Assembly: GCF_002706795.1 (NCBI RefSeq)
Contig: NZ_CP017705.1
Span: 3,346,501-3,410,500, forward strand
DNA: 64,000 nucleotides
Reading direction: 5' to 3'
Source of the DNA: Brevibacillus laterosporus DSM 25
Lineage (GTDB): Bacteria; Bacillota; Bacilli; Brevibacillales; Brevibacillaceae
Of this stretch, positions 47,868-64,000 are shown one piece after another. Under the pieces are notes generated by a model, which did no database searches, was not told where the DNA came from, and saw nothing but the letters and a program-made list of their open reading frames with translations. The translations under genes were made by a program, and so were the position numbers. Numbering within the stretch: the first letter of the stretch is position 1; every line of letters starts with the position of its first letter.

Positions 47868-47907
47868 AGTAAAAGTTATAGTGAAAAATGAAGAGAGAGG
47901 TAAGGTC

Positions 47908-48879
47908 GTGAAGTCAGGTACCAAAGAGAAGGGATTGCCTAAAAGAATACGCCTCCGTGGACATTACCAAATTAAAAAAATGATTTCGCAAAGCGAACTG
48001 TCGATCGTGTATACTGCACGTCAACTTGGCAGTAAACATACACGTATTATAAAAGAGTTTTTTCCGAGAGCACTTGCCTTGCGTGATCTCGATAATAAGA
48101 CGGTTTTTTGTCGGCTACCTTCTTTACAGGATAAATATAACGATTTGATGCAGGCATTTCTTCGAGAAGCAGACATTATCAAAGGGCTGAATCACCCTAA
48201 TTTTGTATCATATGTGGACTTTTTTGAGGAGAATGGTACAGCCTATTTAGTAATGAATTACTGTGAAGGGATGACACTGGATCGTTATATACAGGAGACG
48301 GAGCAGCTATATACTGCGGAAGTTATAGAAAAGACATGGCTACCTCTGGCTAATGCCCTCGAACATCTACATAAGCAAGGCGTTATTCATCGGGATATTA
48401 AACCTAGCAATATTATCATCAGCCCATCTGGGACTCCTATCTTGATCGATTTTGGCTCAGCTATTCTGATGAGCCAAGAAGGAAAAGGAGATAAACAAAC
48501 GATTGTAACCACAGCAGGCTACTCTCCCTTGGAATTTTATTCAGAGAAAGCAAAACAAGACGCACGCTCTGATTTATACAGCTTCGCGGCGACGCTTTTC
48601 TTCTATATTAATAGGAGTGCTCCTACGGATGTTACTCAGCGCTTATTTGAGCATCGTTTTGATGGAATACATCTGGCTTCTTCTATCGTGACTCCCATGT
48701 TGGCACGAGTCATTCACTGGGGATTAGCCGTTCAGGCTGATAAGAGATGCCCTACGTTAAAATGGTTCAAGCATGCTCTGTATGCAGAAGCGTTTATTTG
48801 GAAAAGTAGAGAGAGGCTGCTTCCTGCATCAAAGCAAAAAACAGCCGCTTCTACTTCATCCTCTCAAAAACTACATTAA
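47908..48879 (+). CDS. Ser/Thr protein kinase (Hanks type)
   Basis: A 323-residue soluble kinase. The catalytic lysine is K49 (IIKEFF), the C-helix glutamate is in FLREADIIKGLNHPN, the catalytic loop is HRDIKPSNI (D163), the metal motif DFG is at D181, and the activation segment ends TTAGYSPLEFYS in place of the usual APE. The glycine-rich loop is replaced by a serine-containing ISQSELSIVY. There is no membrane helix or PASTA domain, so it is not PrkC. GTG 47908 follows AAGG; GTG 47881 has no site. It overlaps tail-to-tail with the VWA gene. The setting resembles PpkA of type VI secretion. Confidence 0.88.
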   Translation: MKSGTKEKGLPKRIRLRGHYQIKKMISQSELSIVYTARQLGSKHTRIIKEFFPRALALRDLDNKTVFCRLPSLQDKYNDLMQAFLREADIIKGLNHPNFVSYVDFFEENGTAYLVMNYCEGMTLDRYIQETEQLYTAEVIEKTWLPLANALEHLHKQGVIHRDIKPSNIIISPSGTPILIDFGSAILMSQEGKGDKQTIVTTAGYSPLEFYSEKAKQDARSDLYSFAATLFFYINRSAPTDVTQRLFEHRFDGIHLASSIVTPMLARVIHWGLAVQADKRCPTLKWFKHALYAEAFIWKSRERLLPASKQKTAASTSSSQKLH

Positions 48880-50912
48880 TGGTTGGTAGGTACGTCCGAA
48901 TAAAGGTGGGAACTTACTTTAACGGCTTTGTACCGAAGTTCGATCTCTGTGATTTCATCCTCAAATGTAATGTACAATTTGTCATTATAGGTGAGGATTT
49001 CTTTTTTGTTGATACGAAGTAGTGTGGTACCGCGTACTAATGTGCAATTGGAATTGTTTTTTACCAATAGCGTTCCATTTTTACCTGCTTCAAACACAAT
49101 GTATGCAGCTTCTGGTAACGGTTCATTTACATTGAGACTTCTAAATAACTCCTGAAGCGTTATCCTGCGTTGAGGAAATGAGCTGAGAGGCCAGTAGGTA
49201 ACAGGAATGTCATTACCACTAGCAGTTTGTAAAAAATAGCCTTCCAATTTTCCAGATAGCATAGGTTTCGGACGAACGATAAGATAAATGATTCCACCAA
49301 TAAGAGCGGTAGCTAACAGGATGCCACCGATTACTAGATATTTGTCCCAGACTGATGTAATGATCAGGGATAATTCCGATGTAGCCTGTTCACCATCAGG
49401 ATCAATAGCCGTAATTGTCAGAGTGGTTGTTCCAGTTGTAAGTGGCGTAATATGTAACGTTTGATCTTGAATGGATAAGCTTGATACTGATTCATCAGGA
49501 GCAGTTATGATTTTATACGTAAGTGTATCCTGATTAGCATCCGTAAAATATTTGCCCAGATCAATCCCTGATTCCCCTGACTCTTTGGAAATCGAAATTG
49601 TGCGCTGTGCTGTAGCTTGTGGCGCAAGATTCCCAACATGTAGCTTTTCTACAGAGGTTTCTCGATAAAAGTCTGGCCCTTCCATTCTAATTTTCCACGT
49701 ATAGTCCCCTGACTGTTTGAAGACATGCTCCAGTTTCCACTCATCCCCAACTAAATTCATTGGAGTTCTTTGTTCTTGTTTTGTTGCTAAATGGACAGTT
49801 ATGAACTCAGCCTTTAAGGTTTGATTGACATCTTGATCAGTAAATTTTTTGCTTTGAGAATCGATAAGGTGGGCAACGATGCTTGTAGCCTGCCCTTTTT
49901 GTGTTTGATTGGATAGCACTGGGGCTTGTATATCCAGATTGTAGGTACCTAATAAATTAATTTTTACCAGGTTACCGGGTGTACCGCGGAATTTCAGAGT
50001 TACGTTCCCTTTTGGTGGTTGTACCACTTTTAAGAGGGAGTATTTATTTGATTCTATAAATTGGATATTTTTTGCTTGGGAGAATAATTGCGCTTCTTTG
50101 ACGGGGTGCTCAGATAACAGAATAATATTGGCCTCGTTCATGCTCCCGTTAGGAATGGACAGGGATACCTCTTGAAGGGCTCCAGTCGCAGTAACGGCAG
50201 CAACAGAGATCAGTGTAGATTGAATTTGTTTTGCAAAAATCTTATTAAAAATTTCAGGTAAATCCTCGGCACTATCGGTAATGAATGAAGTACCGCCTGT
50301 TTCGGTTGCAATCCGCTTTAACTCTGCTTGATTAACCGATCCGTCTTGGTTTAGTCCAATTGTATAAATGGGGAAGCCCTTTGCTTTGGCTTGCTTAATA
50401 GCTTTTTCAACATCTCTGTTTGAATCTGCTACACTTCTCCCTTTGGACATAGGGCCAAAATCGGTGCCCCCATCTGATAGCAGAAGTAAGAAAGGTCGAT
50501 TTCCACTCTCCGTACGTTTGGCTAAGAGATCTGTACCTGTTAATAGACCGAGTCCGAGATCTGTGTAACCTGAACGTGGTAAAGAGGACAAAGCTTTTTT
50601 TATCTCAGTCTTTTTATCTTTCACTGAGATTGTTGTTAAAGGCTTTGTTTTGACAATTTTGTGATTATAGGCGACAAAACCTACCCTTGTTCGATCTGCA
50701 TTGCTCATATCCATAAATAGTTTAACTACTTCTGCTGCTATGCCTTCTTTATCCGTATCCCTCATGGAATAACTGGCATCCAATACAAACATGGCATCAA
50801 TACCCCGATTAGGATCAGCCTTGGCTAAGGCTTGGGGAGCTTCTAGCAGGCAAGAGAAGGCGATCCCTAAAAGCAAAGCGCATATGGCAAGATACATGGT
50901 GGAATTACGCAT
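48876..50912 (-). CDS. membrane VWA-domain protein with FHA-like cytoplasmic tail
   Basis: A 678-residue protein with a signal peptide (about 1-30, ending near QALAKA), then a VWA domain with an intact MIDAS (D45, S47, S49 in DASYS; later T and D in GYTDLG and LLSDGGTD). Beta-sandwich domains follow, with a cadherin-like YFTDANQDTLTYKI at about 440-520. A membrane helix lies near 530-555 (YLVIGGILLATALIGGIIYL). The inner tail ends with GKNGTLLVKNNSNCTLVRG..., which reads like a degenerate FHA fold. ATG 50912 follows GAGGA; ATG 50924 lacks a site. It is convergent with the kinase by 4 bases. Confidence 0.82.
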   Translation of the reverse strand: MRNSTMYLAICALLLGIAFSCLLEAPQALAKADPNRGIDAMFVLDASYSMRDTDKEGIAAEVVKLFMDMSNADRTRVGFVAYNHKIVKTKPLTTISVKDKKTEIKKALSSLPRSGYTDLGLGLLTGTDLLAKRTESGNRPFLLLLSDGGTDFGPMSKGRSVADSNRDVEKAIKQAKAKGFPIYTIGLNQDGSVNQAELKRIATETGGTSFITDSAEDLPEIFNKIFAKQIQSTLISVAAVTATGALQEVSLSIPNGSMNEANIILLSEHPVKEAQLFSQAKNIQFIESNKYSLLKVVQPPKGNVTLKFRGTPGNLVKINLLGTYNLDIQAPVLSNQTQKGQATSIVAHLIDSQSKKFTDQDVNQTLKAEFITVHLATKQEQRTPMNLVGDEWKLEHVFKQSGDYTWKIRMEGPDFYRETSVEKLHVGNLAPQATAQRTISISKESGESGIDLGKYFTDANQDTLTYKIITAPDESVSSLSIQDQTLHITPLTTGTTTLTITAIDPDGEQATSELSLIITSVWDKYLVIGGILLATALIGGIIYLIVRPKPMLSGKLEGYFLQTASGNDIPVTYWPLSSFPQRRITLQELFRSLNVNEPLPEAAYIVFEAGKNGTLLVKNNSNCTLVRGTTLLRINKKEILTYNDKLYITFEDEITEIELRYKAVKVSSHLYSDVPTNH

Positions 50913-51393
50913 GGATTTCCTCATCTTGACTTTTTACACATCCTTTTCAAGCTTTTCAAGATATGATCTTAAAATAAGAATCGGTCACAATGTCCTAAAA
51001 GTGAATAGAAAAAATAGAAAACAGGAAAATAGAACCAAAAAAAGGTAGAAATAATTGATTTTCGCAACGAAAAATAGGGTGTGAAGGCAATAAGTACCAA
51101 TTCAAATTTTTTGAAAACGGAAAATAAAGGCATAAAGTCCTGATTTTTTTAAATGATTGACAGTGACGAAAATAGTTGATTAATATAAATTGCGAAAGGC
51201 GATAGGGGAATTATGGTAAAAAAATAGATTAATCTGGTAAAAAATGGGTTAATTTAGCATTTAAGTTAGATTAATCCGGGATTATTTGGGACCGAATATC
51301 CCTTGTAATTATGACTTTTTATGCACGTACCATTATTCACATGTAGGTCTTCTTTTTGTAAATACCTCAGCGAAACATAGAAAGGGGCAGATT
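50913..51393. other. AT-rich regulatory gap before the sheath gene
   Basis: Between the divergent VWA and sheath genes. No coding frame is supported. The last 220 bases hold repeated GATTAAT/TTAAT words and two copies of GGTAAAAAA; see the repeat entry. No sigma-A promoter with good hexamers was found by eye. Confidence 0.5.
51178..51279 (+). promoter_or_regulatory. phased TTAAT repeat array, candidate operator
   Basis: AGATTAATCTGG at 51226-51237 and AGATTAATCCGG at 51268-51279 are 42 bases apart. A related GGGTTAATTTAG lies between them at 51246-51257, so TTAAT recurs at 51229, 51249 and 51271, about two helical turns each. A further GATTAAT is at 51178. TGGTAAAAAA occurs twice (51214, 51235). 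A cooperative regulator or curved DNA would fit; the factor is unknown. Confidence 0.45.
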
Positions 51394-53562
51394 ATGGACA
51401 TTATTTATCAAACCAACCGAACGATGCTTTTTGAAGAAATAAATCCAGAGAAACTGGATCTCGTCACAATTGTAGGCGATGTTAAAGGCATAGATAGTCT
51501 AAGTGATGAGAAAGTAAAAGAAATCAATCAGCATCTTCTTGTTAAAAATTTTGACGAATTTTTGGACAAGTTCGAACCGACTGTTTATTCGTTTTACAAT
51601 GCAGCGAATCAAAAAGTGATGTACACACTTAAAAAACCAGAATCAATCGCAGAGGACTGCATCACAGAAATCAAGGTTAATCAACATAATGATTTTCTGA
51701 AAATGTTGTTTACCTTGATTGATACGAAGCGTAGTCAGGGGATTACCAATGTAGACTTTAAGTTCGAAAATTTGTTAGATATGATCTCTCCGAAAAAGGT
51801 CATGGATGATATTAGACAGGTTCGCAAAGAGATTCATTACATGTATAACGAATACGACAAATTAGATGATGGCGATCCAAAGAAACTTGATATGGGTGAC
51901 AAGCTCAATAGCATGTTTGAAGAGGCAAGTCAAAACTATAACAATGTTATGGCGATGCTACCTCTAGCGATCGAGGATATTAAAACAAGACTCTTATTAG
52001 GCGCTTCTTCTGAGGAGAATAAATCCGAGGCGATACAAATCGGGATGCTTACCATCGGGGAGAGCGGTGAATTAAAGATCATCGAGGCTCCAAAAAACGA
52101 TAGCAATGAGCTTATGCTATTAGACGATACAAGCGGCACTGGTTTAGTAACGGTTTTTGAAGAGGATTATGAATCTATTACGGAGACACCTTCTTCTTAC
52201 GTGAGAGACTTAGTAGTACGTACCTTCTGCCCACTACCAGCTGTTCAGACGGAAGTGGATATTGAGACAGAGATTCAAAACTATAATACATATCTTGAAT
52301 TCTACAAAAACGCAAAAGACGACTTTGTCAAAACGGTAAAACCGCTTGTAGAGAAGATTCTTGGTGTGAAAATGTTCTTTGATCAATATGCTACCAAGAA
52401 CAAAGGAATGGTACCTACTCTTCTCATTACGAACACAAAGCTAGATATGTTGGTTAAGAGTAGCAATATTCCACGCCTAGAAACCTATCTGAACACAGTT
52501 AACTCTAAAAATGACTTTACAGATACCATCTGGTTCGGTATTGTACCGTCCGTTGAATTAGAGACTGCTGGCAGAGTAAAAGTAAGCCGCGAGCGTTTCA
52601 AAGGAAACGAGAAAGTTGTAAAGCAGGACGGGAATACTCTGGAATCACTCTCGATGCTTCTAAATGTGGTGAAGGAATACAAGCTACAAATCTTCTTCAG
52701 CTTTGAAACAGGAGAAGAGACCACCTTTAATAGCATGGCTACAGCCGGTATTGATAAATATATCGACAAGTGTAATCCGCTTATTCGTAAGGATTACAGT
52801 GAATTCGCGGTACCTTGTGTACCTAATTTCACAGTCATTCCGAAGGATAAGTCTGGGGTAGTCATTGATAGTCGAATGCTGCAAACTGATTCAGGTGCAC
52901 AGCTTTCCAAAGAAAAAGAAGACATCTTAAAGCTCTGGATTGAAGGAGTCTATATTGGCTCTTCTTACGTGGCAGCAGGTGTGGTGGCATCTTATCAATG
53001 CCCTGATTACATGCGCGAACTATTTAAAAATATCAACAAAGAGTATCCAGGCGTACGCTTTGATATTGAAGCTGGAGATAACAGCTTACGCGCAGTCACT
53101 ACGATGGCGAAAGAAATTTCAGGTTTTACTAACAACATTAAAGATTCAATTAACCGTAAAAATTTCGGCTTTGTCTTCTCATCAGAGAATGCACAGCTTC
53201 AAGAAAGGGATATTAAACGCATTTCGGTTTATAAAGCAAGAAGTCTTGCTTTGGCCGAAGATGGTTTTGATCCTATCTATAAAACCCTCGTGAGTACGTA
53301 TATCGAGCGTATTCTTCGTTTCCAAACTGGAGATTTCAAACACGAAAATATCGTGAAATTCTTCAGTAACAATCCAAGCAGCCAAAAGAGCAAATGGATG
53401 AGTGGACGCGGGTACGTCAATTCCATCGTTCAGGATGGAGATGATATTAGCTACATCATCGATGATAAGAGTAATCTGTGCCACATCGATTTGGTCTTTA
53501 ACGGAAACGTGAAGAACCTTGAAGTGATGATTACCAAGGGCACAACTCCTGTGAAATCGTGA
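51394..53562 (+). CDS. contractile sheath-like protein, TssB-TssC-type fusion (inferred)
   Basis: A 722-residue protein without membrane helices. Residues about 1-200 follow the TssB pattern: a beta-rich start, then HLLVKNFDEFLDKFEPTVYSF (like the NFD..L..M.P..F strand of TssB) and SPKKVMDDIRQVRKEI, the helix after FSP in TssB. Residues about 270-722 follow the TssC layout with VRDLVVRTFCPLP, a long middle, ISVYKARSLALAEDG, and TYIERILRFQTGDF near the end. The tube-like gene follows at once. ATG 51394 is chosen 7 bases after GAAAGGGG. I infer a contractile sheath; eCIS or phage sheath relatives are alternatives. Confidence 0.6.
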   Translation: MDIIYQTNRTMLFEEINPEKLDLVTIVGDVKGIDSLSDEKVKEINQHLLVKNFDEFLDKFEPTVYSFYNAANQKVMYTLKKPESIAEDCITEIKVNQHNDFLKMLFTLIDTKRSQGITNVDFKFENLLDMISPKKVMDDIRQVRKEIHYMYNEYDKLDDGDPKKLDMGDKLNSMFEEASQNYNNVMAMLPLAIEDIKTRLLLGASSEENKSEAIQIGMLTIGESGELKIIEAPKNDSNELMLLDDTSGTGLVTVFEEDYESITETPSSYVRDLVVRTFCPLPAVQTEVDIETEIQNYNTYLEFYKNAKDDFVKTVKPLVEKILGVKMFFDQYATKNKGMVPTLLITNTKLDMLVKSSNIPRLETYLNTVNSKNDFTDTIWFGIVPSVELETAGRVKVSRERFKGNEKVVKQDGNTLESLSMLLNVVKEYKLQIFFSFETGEETTFNSMATAGIDKYIDKCNPLIRKDYSEFAVPCVPNFTVIPKDKSGVVIDSRMLQTDSGAQLSKEKEDILKLWIEGVYIGSSYVAAGVVASYQCPDYMRELFKNINKEYPGVRFDIEAGDNSLRAVTTMAKEISGFTNNIKDSINRKNFGFVFSSENAQLQERDIKRISVYKARSLALAEDGFDPIYKTLVSTYIERILRFQTGDFKHENIVKFFSNNPSSQKSKWMSGRGYVNSIVQDGDDISYIIDDKSNLCHIDLVFNGNVKNLEVMITKGTTPVKS

Positions 53563-53687: not shown

Positions 53688-54113
53688 ATGGGTTTCCGAC
53701 TAAAAGTTGAAGGTGCAGAAACAATTGAACTAGGTTTGGATAACATCCAAACAGTTGTGTATGACACTGACACTCCGGATGATTCCAATGCTAGATCAAC
53801 AGATGTAGGAGCTACACTACGCCTAACCGGTAAAATCATTACATCTACCGATGGTGATAGCGCTGATGACACAATGAAACTAGCTCTGTGGTCTCTAGTA
53901 CCTGCTGAAAAAGCGGATTGCTACAGAAAAGTAACACTAGAAGTAATCGCGGCTGATCAAGTAGTGCGCAAAATCCACATGCCAAATGCTTTTGTAGTAG
54001 ATTACACAGAGCGTTTTGGCGATACAGAAGGTGTTGGGGAGTTCACTCTATACATCAAACAGAAAAAAGACAAAACCGAGCTTACCAAAATTGAAGGCGG
54101 CTATGCCGTTTAA
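53688..54113 (+). CDS. tail tube / Hcp-like protein (inferred)
   Basis: A 141-residue beta-rich protein. The middle has NARSTDVGATLRLTGKI, and the end has NAFVVDYTERFGDTEGVGEFTLYIKQKKD, the F..Y.E.F....G.G.F.L.I.Q pattern of phage gp19/Hcp-type tube proteins. AAGGAGG at 53673-53679 lies 8 bases before ATG 53688. The frame is open back to 53559 but that part has no site and an unrelated composition. It directly follows the sheath-like gene, the order seen in phage tails and injection systems. A 14-bp hairpin follows, as after abundant structural proteins. Confidence 0.65.
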   Translation: MGFRLKVEGAETIELGLDNIQTVVYDTDTPDDSNARSTDVGATLRLTGKIITSTDGDSADDTMKLALWSLVPAEKADCYRKVTLEVIAADQVVRKIHMPNAFVVDYTERFGDTEGVGEFTLYIKQKKDKTELTKIEGGYAV

Positions 54114-54206: not shown

Positions 54207-54653
54207 ATGAAAAATTACTATGACATACTTGGTGTTTCCAAACATGCCTCTGAAGCGGAATTGAAAAAGGCGTATCGACAGTTAGCAAAAAAATATCATC
54301 CCGATGTGAATGCAGGGAGTAGTGAGGCGGAACAACGTTTCAAGGAAGTACATGAAGCTTATACGGTGTTAAAAAGCGAGGAATCACGGGCAGCGTACGA
54401 TGCGAAATTGGATCAGCGGACACAAAAGAGGGCTACATCCACCCAAGGAACAGGCCAGAAATCTACAGAACGCAGGACAACACAAGGATATCAGGGTTTT
54501 GATCCAAGAGATATGGAGCGTAATTTCTCACAATTCTTTGGTTTTAATCCAAAAGATAAAAAAGGGAATCTTCATAAAAACGGATCATCTTCTAAAAATC
54601 CTCTGGATGCCTCAGCGATCTTTCAGAGCTATTTTGGACCGCGAAAAAAATAA
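54207..54653 (+). CDS. J-domain co-chaperone
   Basis: A 148-residue protein with an N-terminal J domain (residues 2-68): [22 protein letters not shown], the HPD tripeptide in [10 protein letters not shown], and [11 protein letters not shown]. There is no zinc finger or DnaJ C-terminal domain; the rest is charged, with FNPKDKKG and a final YFGPRKK. It would stimulate an Hsp70 ATPase, and the Hsp70-fold protein at 60811-63459 in the same gene string is the obvious partner. GGGGGAAAG precedes the ATG. Confidence 0.9.
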
Positions 54654-54789
54654 GGTGGAAGTGCTTGCTCCTCTCTTTGTGGGTGATTTGATGTCAGTGG
54701 ACATACAACTTTCAAGGTATGGAGCCTTTTTTCTTTATAGGTAACGATCGGAATGGAGTGGAAAACACCAGTTAATGGAGGTTGAGAAT

Positions 54790-55350
54790 GTGCAAGAAAA
54801 AGCAAAAAAGTACCGTTCCATTTGGATCATAATCATTGATGTGCTCCTCTTTGTCATTGCAATTAATATTTTATATTTTACGTTTGGCATTCAATCAGAC
54901 CCGATAATGAAATGGTTGGTTAGTCTGTTAGGAATTGCTTTCCTTATTTTTGGAATTACTACACAAAAAAATCAGAAGCGGCTGCCTAAACAATCAAGTA
55001 AGCAGCAAGCAGGTATAACAAAATTAGTCCTACTGGATGAAGACGGAGAAAGAGTGAAAGAGTGGTATATACAGGGGGAAACCTCTTTGGTGATCGGAAA
55101 GAACTCCCGCAATGGCGAGGTTGATATAGATCTATCAGATACGGAATATGCATCGCTTATCAGTACCCACCATGCAGTGCTTAACCACGTTGGAGGGACC
55201 TGGTTCATTGAGGACAATAATTCTCATAATGGGATCGGAATTAAAAAAGCGAATAGCAAACGAACGAATAAAGTAGAGGTCGAAACGCAACAACAGATTG
55301 ATATAAACGATCTGATTTACATAGCAAATACACGTATCTTAGTGAAATAA
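54790..55350 (+). CDS. membrane-bound FHA-domain protein
   Basis: A 186-residue protein with two membrane helices near the start (about 10-30 and 41-58) and a cytoplasmic FHA domain (about 80-186): VIGKNSRNGEVDI, YASLISTHHAVLNH, IEDNNSHNGIGI. The normal arginine of the GR motif is lysine here, while S-x-x-H and N-G are kept, so phosphothreonine binding is plausible but not assured. GTG 54790 follows GGAGGT by 7 bases; the ATG at 54775 overlaps that site. Probably anchors phosphorylated partners at the membrane. Confidence 0.85.
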   Translation: MQEKAKKYRSIWIIIIDVLLFVIAINILYFTFGIQSDPIMKWLVSLLGIAFLIFGITTQKNQKRLPKQSSKQQAGITKLVLLDEDGERVKEWYIQGETSLVIGKNSRNGEVDIDLSDTEYASLISTHHAVLNHVGGTWFIEDNNSHNGIGIKKANSKRTNKVEVETQQQIDINDLIYIANTRILVK

Positions 55351-55384: not shown

Positions 55385-55900
55385 ATGAGTTTAACGAGAT
55401 GTACGAATGGCCATATGTTTAGCACAAGAAAGCACGGTAATACATGCCCCTATTGCAATATCGTTGTAGAACAAGCAGCACGGGGAGAGAACAAGAGTCA
55501 AGTGCGCCCAGCTGATGAAGAAAAGACCATGCCTTATTTGGGAGAAACAACAGGCATTGAGCCCGTGACAGGCTGGTTAGTTTGTATCGAAGGACCACAG
55601 CAGGGACAGGACTATCGAATTATGGCAGAAAAGAATTTCATTGGACGCTCAGAAGAGATGCATATTCGTATTATTGGTGATAACGCCATCTCTAGACGCA
55701 ATCATGCGGTCATTGTCTATGATCCGAAAAAGCGCAACTTTTTTCTATTGCCAGGAGATGCGTCTGGACTTGCTTATCACAACAATGAGGCTGTTTTTTC
55801 CCCAGTGGAGCTAACAGCGTATGATGTCATTCAGCTTGGTCAAAGCAAATTTATCTTTATCCCGTTGTGCGGCGTCCATTTTGAATGGGAAACCAATTGA
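55385..55900 (+). CDS. FHA protein with N-terminal zinc ribbon
   Basis: A 171-residue soluble protein. Residues 6-25 form a zinc-ribbon-like RCTNGHMFSTRKHGNTCPYC (C, H, C, C ligands). Residues about 60-165 are an FHA domain with complete phosphothreonine-binding marks: FIGRSEE and DNAISRRNHAVIVYD. The Arg-Ser pair and SRRNH are intact, so it should bind phosphothreonine, presumably from the kinase at 47908. It lies 10 bases before the PP2C gene, in the same transcript. Confidence 0.88.
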   Translation: MSLTRCTNGHMFSTRKHGNTCPYCNIVVEQAARGENKSQVRPADEEKTMPYLGETTGIEPVTGWLVCIEGPQQGQDYRIMAEKNFIGRSEEMHIRIIGDNAISRRNHAVIVYDPKKRNFFLLPGDASGLAYHNNEAVFSPVELTAYDVIQLGQSKFIFIPLCGVHFEWETN

Positions 55901-55910
55901 GGGTAGGTTG

Positions 55911-56759
55911 ATGAACATGCTGGAAGGACAGGAACTCACGCCGTATTTTTTTGTGCTAGCAGCTTTTACGTTTATGCTATTGCTCTTTATGATACGCCAG
56001 AATCTGATGGCTCCTGTTAAAGAAACGGGCATACAGATCGGAAACGGTCAAACGATCGGCAATCGAGATGAACAAGACGACTACTTTTCGACGGCGACGA
56101 CTCCTATTGGCACATTGGCTGTTTTAGCGGATGGGATTAGTGGGCTTTCACATGGACGGATGTCTAGCACACTGGCTGTTACGCTCTTTATGCGCGAATT
56201 TTTGAATCTAGATGATGTACAAAATATTACTTCTTTTTTTACAAAAGCTGCTCGTAAAAGCAACGCGGAAATCGTGCAACAAATCGGGGGATCAAATGGT
56301 GGTACCACGCTTGTAGCAGCCGTGGTAACAGAGGATAAGCTCTATTGGGGCGCTGTAGGGGATAGCAGTATCATGGTGTTTCGAGATGGGGAGTTTATCA
56401 AAATGAACCATAAGCACATTTTGGAATCCGTGCTAGAGGAACGCTATCTGTCAGGGGAGATTACAAAGGAACAAGCAACAAGTAACCCGATGCGCAAGCG
56501 CCTGATCAATTATTTAGGCTATGAGCAGTTTCAAAATATGGAGATTTGCCACGAGCCGTTTCTGTTGAAAAAGAAAGACAAGGTCATTTTGTTGAGTGAC
56601 GGTGTATACAACACGCTCTCCGAAGTGGAAATGGAGCAGATTTTAATGAATGCCACATCTCCATATGACGCAGCAGAAGAGATGGTGACAGAGATTGAAC
56701 GCAAACAATTACGCAATCAAGATAACGCTACTGTCATTATTTTAGAGCAAGGCTGGTAA
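55911..56759 (+). CDS. membrane PP2C-type Ser/Thr phosphatase
   Basis: A 282-residue protein with one N-terminal helix (about 11-28) and a cytoplasmic PP2C domain. Catalytic residues look complete: NRDEQDDYF near 51, LADGISG (D74, G75), GGTTLVAAVV, GDSSIMVFRDG, LLSDGVYNTL, and QDNATVIIL. It should dephosphorylate targets of the neighbouring kinase, as PppA does in type VI secretion. Start at ATG 55911 follows GAGGG by 7 bases. Ten bases separate it from the preceding FHA gene. Confidence 0.9.
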   Translation: MNMLEGQELTPYFFVLAAFTFMLLLFMIRQNLMAPVKETGIQIGNGQTIGNRDEQDDYFSTATTPIGTLAVLADGISGLSHGRMSSTLAVTLFMREFLNLDDVQNITSFFTKAARKSNAEIVQQIGGSNGGTTLVAAVVTEDKLYWGAVGDSSIMVFRDGEFIKMNHKHILESVLEERYLSGEITKEQATSNPMRKRLINYLGYEQFQNMEICHEPFLLKKKDKVILLSDGVYNTLSEVEMEQILMNATSPYDAAEEMVTEIERKQLRNQDNATVIILEQGW

Positions 56760-56810: not shown

Positions 56811-58781
56811 ATGAGGAAGGAAAACAGCAATTTTCAGACCAGTTTCGTTTCCGAAGCAGGCACTTTTATAGAGAATCGGGATTATTTTGCTTTTGTAGAA
56901 CTAGATGATGTAGCTTGCTGGGTCATTGCCGATGGGATTGACACGGATAAAGAAGTAAAAAGTGCGGAGATGGCGGTGCAAAGTATTTTACAAAGCTTTT
57001 TAGATAAGCCTACAATGTCTCGGCGCAGACTAAAAAAATACATACTCAATGCCCATAACTGGCTAAAGGAAGAAAGTACAAGAGTCCGATTAAAAGCTAG
57101 CATTATGATTGTTGTCACCGATTATAGCAAAATCATTTGGGCAGTGGCAGGCAATGCGAGATTGTACCACTTTCGGCATGGGCGCTTGCAAACGAGAAGC
57201 CATGATCAGTCACTTGCCCAGCAGATGGCTGATGAGGAGCAAATCTCTTTGGTAGCGATAGATAAACACGAAGAACGACACAATCTCCTTTCTTATGTAG
57301 GGAAGCCAGATTTTTTTGAACCATATGTGTCCAAAAAGATTCTACTATCTGATGGAGATGTGATGATGCTGTGCACGCCTGGAGCTTGGGAAGAGGTTAG
57401 CTGCTCGGAAATGCTAGAAACCCTTGAAGAAGCAAAAGGCCCAGAAGAGATGGCTGATCAACTGGAAGAAGTGTTATTAAGTAAACAAAAACAAGTGATT
57501 CATAATTATACGATAGCGTCTATTTATGCTAATAAAGTGTTTAAAGAAGACCCAAAAAAACGTTGGAAAAGGATTAAAACAGCCTTATTTATCGGCATAC
57601 CGGTCCTTTTGCTTGTAGGTGGATTGGTGTATATGAAGGTGCGTGCAGCAGAACGCTTTGCAGAAAACGTCGCTAGTATTTACGAGCATGAGAAAAATGC
57701 GGATGCCTATGTTTCAGAAAAGGATTATGATAAAGCGCTCTTAGAATATAGTGAGGCGCGTAATGCATCGAAACGGATAGATGACAAGATATATAAACAA
57801 TTGTTGAGCAAAAAATTGAAAATTACCGAGCTAATCGTGAATGGAGATAAGTTTGTAAAGGATGGGAAATTGAAACAAGCGGTGGAGAGCTATAAAAAAG
57901 CCTTGGAAGAAGCGAAAAATCATAAGGAGTTTGACAAGAAAGAGATTCAAGAAAAGATCGATCAAGCAGAGAAAATAGCCCAGGTACAGCTTTTGATCAA
58001 GGAAGGCGATTTGCGAGCTAGCAGTGAGGATTATACAGGTGCCATGGAGATGTATCAACAGGCAAAGCTAGCGGCCATCAATGCCTCCTATACGGAGGGA
58101 CAAAAAGAGATTAAGACTAAGATAGATGAAACTCAGCTTAAACATATGGGTGTGGAAAAAGGTACACAGCAATTAGAAGGCGAGAAAATGGAGAAGGATG
58201 GAGATCGTCTGCTGGCGGAGAAGGATTTAGAAGGAGCATTAGGTGCTTATTTGCAGGCGCAGTCCATTTATCAGGAAGCTGGAATGATGGAAAAAGCTCT
58301 AGGTATAGAGCGTAAAATTACCAAGGTGGATGGGTTATTAAATCCGTTACCTGTTCCTGCTGCAAATGGAGGGGACCAGCAACCAGCTGGAGGTCAGGTT
58401 CTGGCACCAGCCTCAGGACAAGCATCTGGACAGACGCCAGTACCACCTGTGAAACAAGGATCAGGAGTAGCTTCTACACCAGCAGCGGGGCAACAGTCGG
58501 GACAAGCACCAACTACCCCACCACCTGCACCAGCTACACAACAGTCACAACCGGCACAGACCCCACAGCAAGCAGTATTTAAAACAGCTGAGACATCGCC
58601 AGAGTCTGTACCACCACCGTTGGAGCAACAAACAAACGAAGCACAGCAGTCTTCGCAGAAGCAAACCCCAAAAACGGTTGAAGCAGAGCAAATTCCCAAG
58701 CAAGCTCAAGCATCGCATATACCAATACCACCAGCCGATGACCAAAAACCAGCGTCAGCTGTGATCAATTTGCACCAGTAA
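56811..58781 (+). CDS. PP2C-like pseudophosphatase with membrane helix and TPR region
   Basis: A 656-residue protein: a PP2C-like domain (1-240), a membrane helix (about 262-281), TPR-like helical repeats (about 290-510; DYDKALLEYSEA, KLKQAVESYKKALEEA), and a proline/glutamine-rich tail (about 520-656). The phosphatase part keeps D41-G42 but has G114-N115 for the usual GD, T189-P190-G191 for SDG and H231-N232 for DN. Loss of these metal ligands predicts an inactive, perhaps phospho-sensing, domain. The sites are real in the translation; loss of activity is inference. It follows the active PP2C by 51 bases. Confidence 0.85.
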   Translation: MRKENSNFQTSFVSEAGTFIENRDYFAFVELDDVACWVIADGIDTDKEVKSAEMAVQSILQSFLDKPTMSRRRLKKYILNAHNWLKEESTRVRLKASIMIVVTDYSKIIWAVAGNARLYHFRHGRLQTRSHDQSLAQQMADEEQISLVAIDKHEERHNLLSYVGKPDFFEPYVSKKILLSDGDVMMLCTPGAWEEVSCSEMLETLEEAKGPEEMADQLEEVLLSKQKQVIHNYTIASIYANKVFKEDPKKRWKRIKTALFIGIPVLLLVGGLVYMKVRAAERFAENVASIYEHEKNADAYVSEKDYDKALLEYSEARNASKRIDDKIYKQLLSKKLKITELIVNGDKFVKDGKLKQAVESYKKALEEAKNHKEFDKKEIQEKIDQAEKIAQVQLLIKEGDLRASSEDYTGAMEMYQQAKLAAINASYTEGQKEIKTKIDETQLKHMGVEKGTQQLEGEKMEKDGDRLLAEKDLEGALGAYLQAQSIYQEAGMMEKALGIERKITKVDGLLNPLPVPAANGGDQQPAGGQVLAPASGQASGQTPVPPVKQGSGVASTPAAGQQSGQAPTTPPPAPATQQSQPAQTPQQAVFKTAETSPESVPPPLEQQTNEAQQSSQKQTPKTVEAEQIPKQAQASHIPIPPADDQKPASAVINLHQ

Positions 58782-58811: not shown

Positions 58812-60098
58812 ATGAAAGATATTATTCTGGATCGCTTAAACAAACTGGAGGATTTAGAACAACGCCGCATGCTAAAGCAACTTATGACTGGCGTGTTCGT
58901 GAATCTCGTTGAATACCAGGAAGAGATGAACAGTAAATTGGAGAAACGGGTGTTTGGCGAGCTGGAAGATCAACAGGAGAAGCATGATGTGTACGTCACC
59001 ATTTGCTCCAAAGATGACTGGGACCCAATCCATGATTTTTTATACCCGATGCTACCTGAAGATACATTGAATAAAACCTGTGATATGAACAGTCTACTTA
59101 CCCAATTGAACAACAAGGAAGAAGCAAGACTGTTTACTCTTTTTTTGCAATGTGATTACCCTACGATTAAACCGCTATTGGATAATAAACGCGTTTTTTC
59201 AGGCAAGCTGACTACAGCAACTAAGACCAAGTCAATCCATGTTCGATTAGAGCAAAACCGGACTTATATGAAACAGATTGAACAGCTTTATACGGTATTT
59301 CAAAAGAATGGTGTACCGTGGAAGACTGTAAACAATCCCTTTGCTTATAAATTTTTTGATGTTATTTTAACAGGCTGTGAAGAGGAATTGGATGAAACAG
59401 AAGAGATTCTGGAGATTACGGTCGATCTGGAGGAATGGGAGAGCTATAAACAGTTGGACAAAATTCCGTTGTGGAATATACAGCGACTTCAGCTTAAAAA
59501 TAGCGGATTTCCGACCCCGGCTATGGATCGGGTTAATTTTGAGCATGTATTGTCGTTGCGGAAAACGGGTACTGATCACGGATATTTGGTGGATGGGGAA
59601 GAAGAGAATATTCGCTACATTAAACGGTCTCATGACGAGCTGACCATTGTTTCACCTCAAGAAAAGGCGGGGATATGGGACGTACTTAAGATCATGCAAC
59701 CAGTGGAATCTAAAATTGGCAAACTGGAATACCCACTTGTTTCAAATAAACGCATCGATAGCTTCTTGGCTCGTTATGCTCGTAAGCAGGCAATGATTGT
59801 ACGAGCAAAAGGAGAAATCATCCGAATTGTTCACTCATTTGAAGCGTCGGATAAGTTGGAGCTGGTAGAGGTTGATATTCAAGAGGATCAAAGGACAAGA
59901 GGGCATACCTATGAGATGAATCCGTTTATTAGCGATAATGTCAGGATGGAACGAGATAAAAAAATCATGCGCTTGCGCTTCCGACATCGCTCTACCCTTA
60001 GTAATACCTCCTTTATTTTGCATGATCTCATGAGCTTTCTTGTTTCAGAAGTACAGATGAGCTTTCCTGAATACAAGTGTGAAGGAGAATGGGCTTGA
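58812..60098 (+). CDS. unrecognised conserved protein of the cluster
   Basis: A 428-residue soluble protein without recognised motifs. The N-terminal helix (LNKLEDLEQRRMLKQLMTG) is followed by alpha/beta segments and a C-terminal HTYEMNPFISDNVRMERDKKIMRLRFRH spaced in charged residues. It has no signal peptide or membrane helix. It begins after AAGGAGG and overlaps the next gene by 4 bases. By position it could be a structural or assembly protein of the injection apparatus (TssF/TssG- or baseplate-like), but sequence does not show that. Confidence 0.75.
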   Translation: MKDIILDRLNKLEDLEQRRMLKQLMTGVFVNLVEYQEEMNSKLEKRVFGELEDQQEKHDVYVTICSKDDWDPIHDFLYPMLPEDTLNKTCDMNSLLTQLNNKEEARLFTLFLQCDYPTIKPLLDNKRVFSGKLTTATKTKSIHVRLEQNRTYMKQIEQLYTVFQKNGVPWKTVNNPFAYKFFDVILTGCEEELDETEEILEITVDLEEWESYKQLDKIPLWNIQRLQLKNSGFPTPAMDRVNFEHVLSLRKTGTDHGYLVDGEEENIRYIKRSHDELTIVSPQEKAGIWDVLKIMQPVESKIGKLEYPLVSNKRIDSFLARYARKQAMIVRAKGEIIRIVHSFEASDKLELVEVDIQEDQRTRGHTYEMNPFISDNVRMERDKKIMRLRFRHRSTLSNTSFILHDLMSFLVSEVQMSFPEYKCEGEWA

Positions 60099-60784
60099 AT
60101 TACATTTGGGATTTGCTAATAAAGGCGGAGCGATCCGGTATAGAGAAAAAACGTGTCCAGTTTACTCCGGCCAAGGTCTTTTCGCCCTACATGGAGCTGA
60201 GTCTGGAAAATCTGAATGCAAAAGAGATCGAGCAAACCATTGAAATCAATCCCTATTATCGTTTTTACGAAATTTTTAGGGATTTATTTGACCCAAATAT
60301 TGAGACGGATGTAGAGCTTCGCAATAGCTTGTTTGATATTCTCATTCATTTTTTAGCAGAGATTGATTTAATGCAAGGCATGAACAAGCGGGAGTATTAT
60401 ATCCGGTTTTTGCAGAAGGATTTAGAGGCAGGCGTGTTTGGGAGCAGTGTGAAAGACAACATATACCTGTTTACCCGAGAGGAACGGGAAATGATAGCTA
60501 GCAATCTTTTGCGTTTATATGAGACAGGTGAAGCTGTTTATTTATTAAAAGACACAACCAAAAAGGTATTTACTCGCTCCACGATATACGCAAATTGCGA
60601 GGAGAAGGATGAGCTGTTGTTTTATATCGGTCAACCAGAAACACAGATCGCTCGGGCTAAGATTGAATTGATTAAGGATTTGTTTTTGCCCGTTCGTTTT
60701 TCCACGGAACTATACTGGAGCTATCATTTTGGCATTATGGAAGTGGAAGAAACGATGCAAGTGGACTACATCGCTCTTTACTGA
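60095..60784 (+). CDS. unrecognised protein, companion of the preceding gene
   Basis: A 229-residue soluble protein rich in aromatic and acidic residues, with INPYYRFYEIFRDLFDPNIE near the middle and a final ELYWSYHFGIM. No known motif. TTG 60095 is chosen because it overlaps the previous stop as TTGA with GAAGGAG eight bases before; ATG 60089 directly abuts that site. Translational coupling suggests a complex with the 58812 product. The INPYYRF/DLFDPN pattern vaguely recalls baseplate proteins, but I would not name it. Confidence 0.72.
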   Translation: MNYIWDLLIKAERSGIEKKRVQFTPAKVFSPYMELSLENLNAKEIEQTIEINPYYRFYEIFRDLFDPNIETDVELRNSLFDILIHFLAEIDLMQGMNKREYYIRFLQKDLEAGVFGSSVKDNIYLFTREEREMIASNLLRLYETGEAVYLLKDTTKKVFTRSTIYANCEEKDELLFYIGQPETQIARAKIELIKDLFLPVRFSTELYWSYHFGIMEVEETMQVDYIALY

Positions 60785-60810: not shown

Positions 60811-63459
60811 ATGAACGGATATTCGTATAGATTGCATACGGACAAAGGGCGAGATAGAAGTCGCTTATTGATCAGATACTCGCGAGAAGAGCTGGAGGAT
60901 ATGACCACCTTCCAATTGCGTAACATTTGTTATACGGAGCGATTAGTCGAAGGGGTTGCCAATAAACTCGATCGGGAGGCTTTGATCGATACGATCCTAA
61001 AATTCCGTGGATCAGTGGGCAGCTTATTGATTCGAGGCTTTCACAAGGGTGGCTTCCAGCGGATCGAGGAAGCGATCCATACGTATTTAAAAACACCCTT
61101 ATCTAATCAGGTAAGAATCAAAGTTCCAGCCAAAATCTCTTTGTACCGTGGACTAAAGGTAGACAAATTGGATCAATACCTAGTAGAAGCGATCGGTATG
61201 CAAGAGTCTAATGTGTTACTGATCAATGACAGCATGGAATTATGTGGGGTCCTGCATCTGAAAAAGGATGAGTCGCAACCAGAGCTTTATTACTTAGCGA
61301 TGGATCGCAACACGGAGCTACGGAGAACGGCTAATCAAAATTATAGCCTGTTGTTCTTTAGAAAGCAGGATTCGGAATACCTGTATAGAGCCTACTATCA
61401 GGATGCCCCTTTACTACCAGCCAACCTCCACTATTGCAAGGTTCCTGTGACAGATTTGGAAATTTGCGAGTTAGAAGAGACAGGTGCTGTACTGGCAATC
61501 GATTTTGGGACATCTAATACAACCGCAGGAGCCTATCTGGATAGCGGATATATTTCTACCCCCCCAAGCCATGATTTATTAAATGGACAAATACGCCTGA
61601 ATGAGATTAATTACGTAAAATTTCCTGATGAGACAGAGCAGTCGACCGATTGGGTCGCGGTTGTGCCAACGATCGTTAGTGTAGCAGACTGTCGAGATCA
61701 AGAGAATATCCAATACCATTTCGGATATGAAGCTCTCTCCCATCGCAAAAAGAATGGCTTCAGCAGTCAATCCTCTCAATTCCAGGGTCTAAAAAGATGG
61801 GTAAATGCTTACACGAAGACAGAAGAAATAGTTGATATGGAAGGCAACACAGCTTATGTCAAACGAAGCGACATCCTACGCGGCTTCCTGACCCATATTG
61901 TGGAAATGGCCGAGCATCAGTTTAAATGCCGTTTCACCCACTTGCATATCTCAAGTCCAGTCAAATTAAAAACGCAATTTATTGAAATGTTCCATGAGAT
62001 TTTACCTCAGTACCAGATTGAATCAAAGGATGCATTGGATGAGGGCATGGCGGTACTCTACAATACCATTGCCGATCAGATTGAGAAAAATCGATTCCTG
62101 GATGGCGAGGAATATAGGGCATTGGTCATCGATTGTGGAGGAGGTACCACTGATCTGTCCTCCTGCCAGTTTTCCATTTTAGATGGGCATATTTCCTACA
62201 AGATTGATATACATACAACCTATGAGAATGGTGATACCAACTTTGGCGGCAATAACATCACCTATCGTATTATGCAATTTATGAAGATTGTTTTTGCCAA
62301 TTACTATACGAAAAGACGAATGAACACAGATATAGATGAACTGATTCCTATCCCAGCCACCGATCTATATCGCTATGTGGATGAATATGGTGTAGGGGCT
62401 GTCTACGAAAACTTCGAGGCAAGCTATCTGGAGGCAGATCGGTTTATTCCGACACAATTTAAGCTGTACGAAAATCGCTCACGTGAAGAATATCACCGCG
62501 TGCGCAACAACTTTTACTTCCTGTGGGAGCTAGCTGAGAACATGAAAAAAGAGTTCTTCCGCAGGACAGGTATCCTACGAAATCGATTCCAGTCTGCCGC
62601 CAGCGAGGATTCGGACAATGATTTAAAAATCACAAAAATGGATCGTTGGTTCCTCTCTGTCCTTCATCAGGGAGTGTTTCGAGAGGAGTACGAATTCCCC
62701 AATGTGGTATTTACCATTAGGGAAATCAGCCAGCTGATCCGTGCAGATATCTATGAGATTGTGCGTAAATTTTTGGATGAATATTACCAAGATGGACGCT
62801 TACAAGACTTTTCCATCATTAAATTAACAGGTCAATCCTGCCGTATCGATGTGTTCCGTGAAGCGTTAAAAGAATTTGTTCCGGGGCGCAGTATTGAATT
62901 CAAGCAAAAAATAGAGGAAACGGGCAAGGTTTCTGACCTCAAGCTGGCATGCTTACGCGGCTCTCTTCGTTATCTGAGTGCTAAAAAATCTGGGTTCATC
63001 GAGGCAAGCATCACGAACCACGCACCAATCATTCCTTATTCGGTGAGCGCATTTACCCATAATCAGCATGAAAAAACGTTAATCAACAGCTTAGAGCGAG
63101 CCAATCAGGTACAGGGCTTCATTTCACGCCCAATTGCTGTTAGAGAGATTCAGTTCTTTTTAAAGGATGCGAAGGGAAATCCACGGCATCACTACGTGTT
63201 TATCAATCAGCCTGAGAGCTATAAACAGATGGTCTACGAGCAGATCGCAAGCATCTATCCAGGTAAAATCCCGCAGGATGATACAGATTCAATCATTAAT
63301 GGGGAAGTTAAATTCTTTGTTTTTACAGATGAAAAGAGCTGGGGCTTCTATATAGTGCCAGTTGCAAGGCAAAACGAACAGCTTTATCTCGGTAAGAAAC
63401 AGTTTTTTGCGTTTGAAAACGACCTGTCTGAGCTGGATTTCTTTGATGGCCTAAAGTAA
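60811..63459 (+). CDS. Hsp70/actin-fold ATPase with N-terminal extension
   Basis: An 882-residue protein. Residues about 228-720 contain the sugar kinase/Hsp70/actin ATPase marks: phosphate-1 AIDFGTSNTTAG (D231), phosphate-2 VIDCGGGTTDLSS (D441), and the adenosine motif IKLTGQSCRIDVFREAL. The first 220 residues are a separate domain, and the end (about 720-882) has no SBD-like segment I know, so it is not DnaK. It recalls SrfB-type or other dedicated chaperone-like ATPases. AAGGAGG precedes the ATG. It is likely served by the J protein at 54207. Confidence 0.82.
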   Translation: MNGYSYRLHTDKGRDRSRLLIRYSREELEDMTTFQLRNICYTERLVEGVANKLDREALIDTILKFRGSVGSLLIRGFHKGGFQRIEEAIHTYLKTPLSNQVRIKVPAKISLYRGLKVDKLDQYLVEAIGMQESNVLLINDSMELCGVLHLKKDESQPELYYLAMDRNTELRRTANQNYSLLFFRKQDSEYLYRAYYQDAPLLPANLHYCKVPVTDLEICELEETGAVLAIDFGTSNTTAGAYLDSGYISTPPSHDLLNGQIRLNEINYVKFPDETEQSTDWVAVVPTIVSVADCRDQENIQYHFGYEALSHRKKNGFSSQSSQFQGLKRWVNAYTKTEEIVDMEGNTAYVKRSDILRGFLTHIVEMAEHQFKCRFTHLHISSPVKLKTQFIEMFHEILPQYQIESKDALDEGMAVLYNTIADQIEKNRFLDGEEYRALVIDCGGGTTDLSSCQFSILDGHISYKIDIHTTYENGDTNFGGNNITYRIMQFMKIVFANYYTKRRMNTDIDELIPIPATDLYRYVDEYGVGAVYENFEASYLEADRFIPTQFKLYENRSREEYHRVRNNFYFLWELAENMKKEFFRRTGILRNRFQSAASEDSDNDLKITKMDRWFLSVLHQGVFREEYEFPNVVFTIREISQLIRADIYEIVRKFLDEYYQDGRLQDFSIIKLTGQSCRIDVFREALKEFVPGRSIEFKQKIEETGKVSDLKLACLRGSLRYLSAKKSGFIEASITNHAPIIPYSVSAFTHNQHEKTLINSLERANQVQGFISRPIAVREIQFFLKDAKGNPRHHYVFINQPESYKQMVYEQIASIYPGKIPQDDTDSIINGEVKFFVFTDEKSWGFYIVPVARQNEQLYLGKKQFFAFENDLSELDFFDGLK

Positions 63460-63548
63460 GTGGGGGAAGAATCGGACAGGTATAAATCGCTTGTCCTTGT
63501 CAGACAGCTTGCAGTAACAACCACGGCATGCATAAAGGAGGTCGCCAC

Positions 63549-64000
63549 TTGTTTACCCATCTGTATCCCAATTTTAATAAAGGCCGCATCTTAAAAACAG
63601 ACATGCTTGCCAATCTTCGAGATTACCCTCGCGATTTTCTCGATATTCAATACAAAGAGTATTCAGATGGGGTCATTACTGGATCAGAAATACGTATTGG
63701 AGAGCTAAGTATCACCATCACACCGGGGATTGTGAAGCATTCCGGGCGCTTGTATGTATTAAAGGAAGAGCATGAGCTTATGTATCAAGCCAACAATCGA
63801 GAAACTGTGGTCAAAATCAGGTTTCATGAACAGATGACAGACAGCGACTTCACGATTAACAGTTCGGAAATTGTGCTGGATGAACAGGTCGAGCTTGGTC
63901 AGAACGAACTAGAATTAGGTCGTTTTAAGCTAAAGGAAGGCGCCAAGCTACGCTCTGAATATCAGAGCTTTGTAGATTTGGCTACGGAATACAATACGTT
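63549..64000 (+). CDS. tail/baseplate-like protein, cut by window end
   Basis: A TTG start, 6 bases after AAAGGAGGT (63534-63542), opens a frame that runs to the window edge (about 150 residues). The N-terminus is MFTHLYPNFNKGRILKTDML, followed by a beta-rich GELSITITPGIVKHSGRLYVL, a pattern seen in phage tail and baseplate fibre-like proteins. The assignment is weak and based on look alone. It continues the operon, so the cluster extends past 64 kb. Confidence 0.6.
   Translation, partial: MFTHLYPNFNKGRILKTDMLANLRDYPRDFLDIQYKEYSDGVITGSEIRIGELSITITPGIVKHSGRLYVLKEEHELMYQANNRETVVKIRFHEQMTDSDFTINSSEIVLDEQVELGQNELELGRFKLKEGAKLRSEYQSFVDLATEYNT

What the first reader, a model, noticed from the sequence alone, without database searches (positions are those of the whole stretch)
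51394..53562. One protein appears to fuse TssB-like and TssC-like sheath halves
TssB and TssC are separate proteins in canonical type VI systems. Here a single 722-residue protein has a TssB-like first 200 residues (HLLVKNFDEFLDKFEPTVYSF; SPKKVMDDIRQV) and TssC-like remainder (Y.AR.LA..DG; YIERILRF). Phage sheaths are single proteins too, so a fusion would sit between both types.
Basis: inference. Interest (0 to 1): 0.75.

Follow-up and report, generated by a model that had tools for sequence, protein, structure and literature searches.

The report
Likely sheath of Gram-positive injection machine
A very conserved 722-residue protein sits beside a syringe-tube gene in a harpoon-like toxin-injection cluster that many Gram-positive bacteria carry but that the papers searched do not describe; it is probably the one-piece contractile sheath, although its fold could not be confirmed here.

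Summary
It has no significant match in Pfam, NCBIfam, PHROGs or PDB, yet it is strongly conserved as a single chain across Bacillota (80-86% in Brevibacillus/Paenibacillus, ~69% in Clostridium, down to ~23% in divergent clostridia). It lies directly upstream of a 141-residue gene whose predicted fold (pLDDT 80) matches T6SS Hcp, eCIS and phage tail tubes. The same cluster encodes VgrG-like spikes, a DUF4280 PAAR-like tip, a VgrG-Rhs toxin candidate with SUKH-type immunity genes, and a kinase/VWA/FHA/PP2C set resembling T6SS phosphorylation control. In 380 clostridial genomes the family co-occurs with DUF4280 (43/52 versus 6/328, p=4e-41). Published work had noted that Firmicute DUF4280 genes lack a known machine; this cluster is probably it. 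The TssB-like N-terminus has modest statistical support and is absent from phage sheaths. The TssC-like half is not supported: its 'YxARxLA' stretch resembles the GARTL motif of some phage sheaths instead. AlphaFold of the full protein failed (pLDDT 42), so sheath identity (about 0.8) rests on context plus motifs. Five canonical T6SS sheath, baseplate and membrane families are absent from the genome.

The parts
51394..53562 (+). Candidate single-chain contractile sheath protein, 722 aa (P0001): TssB-like motifs at residues 51-66 and 121-150, ARSL motif near residue 614
53688..54113 (+). Hcp-like inner-tube protein, 141 aa, start after RBS AAGGAGG
   Evidence: pLDDT 80, pTM 0.75; Foldseek: eCIS, T6SS Hcp and phage tail tubes
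54207..54653 (+). DnaJ-domain protein with intact HPD
54775..55350 (+). Membrane FHA-domain protein (two predicted TM segments)
55385..55900 (+). Zn-ribbon-like plus FHA-domain protein
55821..56759 (+). PP2C-type Ser/Thr phosphatase, one predicted TM segment (annotated start overlaps the upstream gene; true start may be later)
56811..58781 (+). PP2C-like plus TPR protein, one predicted TM segment
58812..60098 (+). Conserved 428-aa protein of unknown family (baseplate candidate)
60089..60784 (+). Conserved 231-aa protein of unknown family (baseplate candidate)
60811..63459 (+). 882-aa Hsp70/actin-like ATPase-fold protein with DFGTSNT and DCGGGT motifs
63528..64000 (+). Start of conserved 265-aa protein (continues past window; possible TssK/receptor-binding-like adaptor, by eye only)
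47881..48879 (+). Ser/Thr protein kinase (HRDIKPSN, DFG)
48876..50924 (-). von Willebrand A-like protein (domain call by eye) with N-terminal hydrophobic segment and C-terminal TM, divergent from the sheath gene

Best explanation
The protein is probably the single-chain contractile sheath of a chromosomal, T6SS-like contractile injection system native to Bacillota, apparently not described in the literature searched. Proposed mechanism: it polymerises around a tube of the neighbouring Hcp-like protein on a baseplate (perhaps the 428-, 231- and 265-aa proteins). The tube is tipped by a VgrG-like trimer and a DUF4280 PAAR-like protein carrying a VgrG-Rhs toxin. Contraction drives the tube out through the single membrane and wall into a neighbour. 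Kinase, FHA proteins and PP2C phosphatases would gate firing from the membrane, as PpkA/PppA/Fha do in some T6SSs. No ClpV-like gene was seen in the cluster, and in a fused chain the TssC N-terminus that ClpV grips would be buried, so recycling may be absent or done by the operon's DnaJ/Hsp70-like pair. Shown: ORF, conservation, tube fold (predicted), VgrG and PAAR-like domains, co-occurrence, absence of five canonical T6SS families from the genome. Inferred: sheath fold, contraction, baseplate roles, firing control, recycling, targets.
For: Sheath and tube genes lie together in essentially all related loci fetched, and are among the most conserved proteins of the cluster. The tube model has pLDDT 80 and its best PDB matches are eCIS, T6SS and phage tail tubes at E 2e-5 to 1e-3. 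VgrG-like (Phage_GPD), DUF4280 and Rhs domains lie downstream. DUF4280 co-occurs with the sheath family in 43 of 52 positive genomes versus 6 of 328 others, p=3.7e-41; in the 31 same-contig cases tabulated the two lie within 25 kb. A TssB-like motif pair lies in the N-terminus and is absent from phage sheaths; an ARTL motif sits near the C-terminus as in GARTL phage sheaths. No relative was found in phage, plasmid or viral-contig collections. PMC8651086 and PMC5349215 independently raised a missing Gram-positive phage-like translocation system from DUF4280/VgrG genes.
Against: Full-length AlphaFold failed (pLDDT 41.6) and its Foldseek hits are meaningless. No HMM or profile-profile hit to any sheath family exceeds decoys. 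The motif tests use windows chosen with hindsight, the relatives are not independent, and the full TssB HMM lifts only 1 of 18 divergent members. Six DUF4280-positive genomes lacked a detected sheath match and nine sheath-positive ones lacked DUF4280, although many of these are incomplete.
Confidence: 0.8

Rival explanations
1. It is a single-chain sheath of phage/eCIS descent that never passed through a TssB/TssC stage; the N-terminal TssB-like pattern is convergent or an ancestral feature kept by both lineages.
For: C-terminal ARTL motif at about the phage-sheath position, absent from TssC; no TssC signal; all full-length homologues found are single chains.
Against: The TssB-like motif pair is not found in 59 Bacillota phage sheaths (1 of 59 above the decoys' 95th percentile); no phage relative found.
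Confidence: 0.5
2. It is a true fusion of ancestral tssB and tssC, in a diverged Gram-positive T6SS lineage.
For: TssB-like N-terminal motifs; sheath-then-tube gene order like tssB-tssC-hcp in the fetched T6SS loci; 722 aa against about 660-680 aa for TssB plus TssC; regulatory genes of T6SS type.
Against: TssC-like half not detected; no split intermediate found; canonical baseplate and membrane families absent.
Confidence: 0.25
3. It is not the sheath but another tail-associated component (cap, length control or baseplate protein) encoded beside the tube.
For: No fold or HMM evidence for a sheath.
Against: Adjacent to the tube, long, highly conserved and without a better sheath candidate in the cluster, whose other genes mostly have other recognisable domains; motif evidence.
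Confidence: 0.15

Closest known systems
Type VI secretion system (TssB/TssC sheath, Hcp, VgrG, PAAR, PpkA/PppA/Fha control)
   Same: Tube, VgrG-like spike, PAAR-like tip, Rhs cargo with immunity genes, kinase/FHA/PP2C genes, no evident tape measure in the cluster, TssB-like N-terminal motifs
   Different: One-chain sheath candidate; no TssB, TssC, TssK, TssF or TssM family members in the genome; no ClpV seen in the cluster; Gram-positive hosts
Extracellular contractile injection systems (Afp, PVC, Streptomyces CIS, haloarchaeal CIS)
   Same: Single-chain sheaths; tube fold (best tube hits are eCIS tubes); found in monoderm hosts
   Different: No recognisable eCIS sheath family match; phosphorylation-control genes present; no lysis genes recognised
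Contractile phage tails and R-type bacteriocins (GARTL-type sheaths)
   Same: Single chain; AR[TS]L motif about 100-120 residues from the C-terminus
   Different: No detectable sequence homology; TssB-like N-terminal motifs; no relatives in phage collections
DUF4280/Phage_GPD loci of Firmicutes lacking a known machine (PAAR_H2 in PMC8651086; PMC5349215)
   Same: Very probably the same system: DUF4280 and VgrG-like genes of this cluster
   Different: Those papers did not identify the sheath, the tube or the rest of the cluster

Membership tests
Type VI secretion system | Two-subunit TssB/TssC sheath | tested here: not met
   No PF05591 or PF05943 match in the genome; single chain in all full-length homologues
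Type VI secretion system | Hcp tube | tested here: met
   Tube model matches Hcp and eCIS tubes; by predicted fold only
Type VI secretion system | VgrG spike and PAAR or PAAR-like tip | tested here: met
   Phage_GPD 4.9e-10 and DUF4280 3.4e-33
Type VI secretion system | TssK/TssF baseplate | tested here: not met
   No PF05936 or PF05947 match in the genome
Type VI secretion system | TssM (IcmF) membrane complex | tested here: not met
   No PF06744 match in the genome
Type VI secretion system | ClpV recycling ATPase | tested here: inconclusive
   No AAA ATPase among the cluster proteins scanned; whole genome not searched for ClpV
TssB/VipA | Conserved NFxxVM...P and FxPxxVxxQVPxL...R segments | tested here: inconclusive
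   p=0.006 motif pair, p=0.019 full HMM; not significant by Pfam or hhalign
TssC/VipB | Conserved core and C-terminal segments | tested here: not met
   Motif p 0.30-0.80; HMM no signal
Phage/eCIS sheath (PF04984, PF17482) | Recognisable sheath domains | tested here: not met
   No Pfam or PHROG sheath hit; hhalign at decoy level
Phage/eCIS sheath (PF04984, PF17482) | C-terminal GARTL motif | tested here: inconclusive
   AR[TS][LM] at a comparable position in 17 of 20 sequences versus 1.3% background; longer motif p=0.31
Contractile sheath fold | Sheath three-dimensional fold | tested here: inconclusive
   Model too poor: pLDDT 41.6, pTM 0.30

The most novel reading that the evidence does not exclude
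A distinct, vertically maintained class of contact-dependent contractile secretion system native to Gram-positive Bacillota, with a one-chain sheath joining a TssB-like N-terminus to a phage-like C-terminus, its own baseplate, T6SS-type phosphorylation control, and Hsp70/DnaJ-based instead of ClpV-based recycling.
Probability: 0.4. Interest if true: 0.88.

Novelty: new variant of a known kind. Interest (0 to 1): 0.68.

Why it matters
Published surveys noted DUF4280/VgrG genes in Firmicutes without any T6SS or eCIS genes around them and speculated about an unknown Gram-positive phage-like translocation system (PMC5349215, PMC8651086). This cluster supplies the missing tube, sheath candidate and control genes, and makes the question directly testable in non-pathogenic Brevibacillus or Paenibacillus. 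It would extend T6SS-like, antibacterial contractile weapons to a large group of soil and gut Gram-positive bacteria, and a sheath with both TssB-like and phage-like features would bear on how two-subunit T6SS sheaths arose.

Tried and rejected
Full-length AlphaFold on 29 close homologues failed and Foldseek on it gave unrelated glycosidases; deeper, more divergent homologues could not be used for folding under the tool's source rule. Pfam, NCBIfam, PHROGs and PDB sequence searches, for P0001 alone and for alignments of 15-36 members, gave nothing credible. hhalign against TssB, TssC and phage-sheath profiles did not beat block-shuffled decoys. An HMM of the family against TssB did not beat shuffles. 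TssC motif pairs showed no signal. A longer GARTL motif profile was not significant for P0001 (p=0.31). Viral, phage and plasmid collections hold no relative. Rejected: prophage origin (vertical-like conservation, no phage relatives; the genome's phage-type sheaths lie elsewhere).

Full report
Observation. The ORF 51394-53562 is open and gives 722 residues; its ATG follows AAAGGGG and related proteins align from the same residue, mostly with an M[DE]I start. It has no significant match to Pfam, NCBIfam, PHROGs or PDB sequences. The window is one stretch of a single-contig 5.4-Mb genome; the closest named relative is Brevibacillus laterosporus at 98%.

Relatives. One genome scan found 117 relatives, 80 kept: 80-86% identity in most Brevibacillus and Paenibacillus, 78-81% in Lysinibacillus, Sporosarcina and Solibacillus, about 69% in Clostridium. 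A sample of 299 Bacillota genomes had six positives; a sample of 380 genomes of the class of G248 had 52, including sequences about 22-28% identical to P0001 in the family alignment. The full-length homologues are single chains of about 720-770 residues. None was found in plasmid, phage or viral-contig collections.

Neighbourhood. The gene order is strongly conserved across the fetched loci: kinase, VWA-like protein, P0001, a 141-aa protein, DnaJ, two FHA proteins, PP2C, PP2C-TPR, 428-aa and 231-aa proteins, Hsp70-like protein, 265-aa protein. In this genome it continues past the window with a 230-aa protein, a VgrG-like protein (Phage_GPD), a pentapeptide protein, a 185-aa protein, a DUF4280 PAAR-like protein, a 2023-aa VgrG-Rhs protein, and genes with SUKH and Syd immunity-type domains. 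Kinase HRDIKPSN/DFG, DnaJ HPD and the Hsp70-like phosphate motifs are intact, and membrane segments are predicted in one FHA protein, both PP2C proteins and the VWA-like protein.

Tube. The 141-aa neighbour starts at 53688 after AAGGAGG. AlphaFold with 46 sequences gives pLDDT 80 and pTM 0.75. The 26 PDB matches with E up to 1e-3 come from eCISs, T6SS Hcp proteins and phage tails. This is the firmest evidence that the cluster encodes a tail-like machine.

Link to DUF4280. In the same 380 genomes, DUF4280 is in 49, of which 43 also carry the P0001 family (Fisher p 3.7e-41); in the 31 same-contig cases tabulated the two lie 0.2-24 kb apart. Lays et al. 2016 (PMC5349215) raised, and the 2021 PAAR survey (PMC8651086) repeated, the possibility of an unknown Gram-positive phage-like translocation system; the survey did so because these genes had no T6SS or eCIS neighbours. 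The cluster here fits that description.

TssB/TssC test. The N-terminus carries KNFDEFLDKFEPTVYSF and FKFENLLDMISPKKVMDDIRQVR, which align with TssB NNFxxVMxxxxPxV and LxFxSMxDFxPxxVAxQVPxL..R. Against 666 decoy segments the motif pair gives p=0.006 for P0001; 15 of 18 divergent members exceed the decoys' 95th percentile against 1 of 59 phage sheaths. A full TssB HMM gives p=0.019 for P0001, with 40 of 61 family members but only 1 of 18 divergent ones above the 95th percentile. Profile-profile scores do not beat decoys, so homology is suggested and not proved. TssC tests show nothing.

Structure. The full-length model is unusable (pLDDT 41.6; Foldseek). Sheath identity is therefore inferred from position beside the tube, size, conservation, absence of a better candidate, and motifs.

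Membership. The genome lacks TssB, TssC, TssK, TssF and IcmF_C families. The system works like a T6SS or CIS but is not filed as a canonical T6SS. It is not one of the genome's phage-type sheaths, which lie elsewhere.

Mechanism (inferred beyond what is cited). Sheath and tube polymerise on an unrecognised baseplate, the VgrG-like/PAAR-like tip carries an Rhs toxin, phosphorylation proteins gate firing, and contraction delivers the tip. A covalently joined TssB-TssC-like chain would hide the N-terminal TssC segment that ClpV grips in T6SS (own knowledge), which fits the absence of an evident ClpV in the cluster; DnaJ and the Hsp70-like protein are possible substitutes.

Literature. Ten searches of open-access PMC found no paper that describes this cluster; subscription papers and preprints were not searchable. 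The haloarchaeal T6SS paper (PMC11566945) reports contact-dependent antagonism by a membrane-bound CIS whose nearest relatives by its Cis11 tree are Bacillota CISs; those appear to be a different, recognised lineage, but this was not tested here.

Noticed in passing
G450, G451, G452, G467, G471, G482: Several clostridial genomes carry two separate members of the sheath family, one near 60% and one in the divergent group, suggesting two parallel systems in one cell.
   Followed up: no
G478, G459, G490: A few family members carry stop codons inside the frame, i.e. decaying or misassembled copies.
   Followed up: no
L082:6233-14222 (just past the window end): A 2023-aa VgrG-Rhs protein followed by SUKH- and Syd-type putative immunity genes: probable effector-immunity cassette of the system.
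   Followed up: partly
L082:1858-2550: 230-aa protein that by eye resembles DcrB/DUF1795 (Eag) effector chaperones; no Pfam match.
   Followed up: no
window 60811-63459 and 54207-54653: An Hsp70/actin-like protein and a J-domain protein are conserved parts of the cluster; their role in a contractile machine is unexplained.
   Followed up: partly
L100:9593-11380: In the divergent G248 cluster the DUF4280 domain is fused to a long C-terminal region, a likely PAAR-like effector.
   Followed up: no
window 55385-55900: The second FHA protein begins with a zinc-ribbon-like CxxGH...CxxC stretch and in its best-matching stretch is nearly as conserved as sheath and tube.
   Followed up: no
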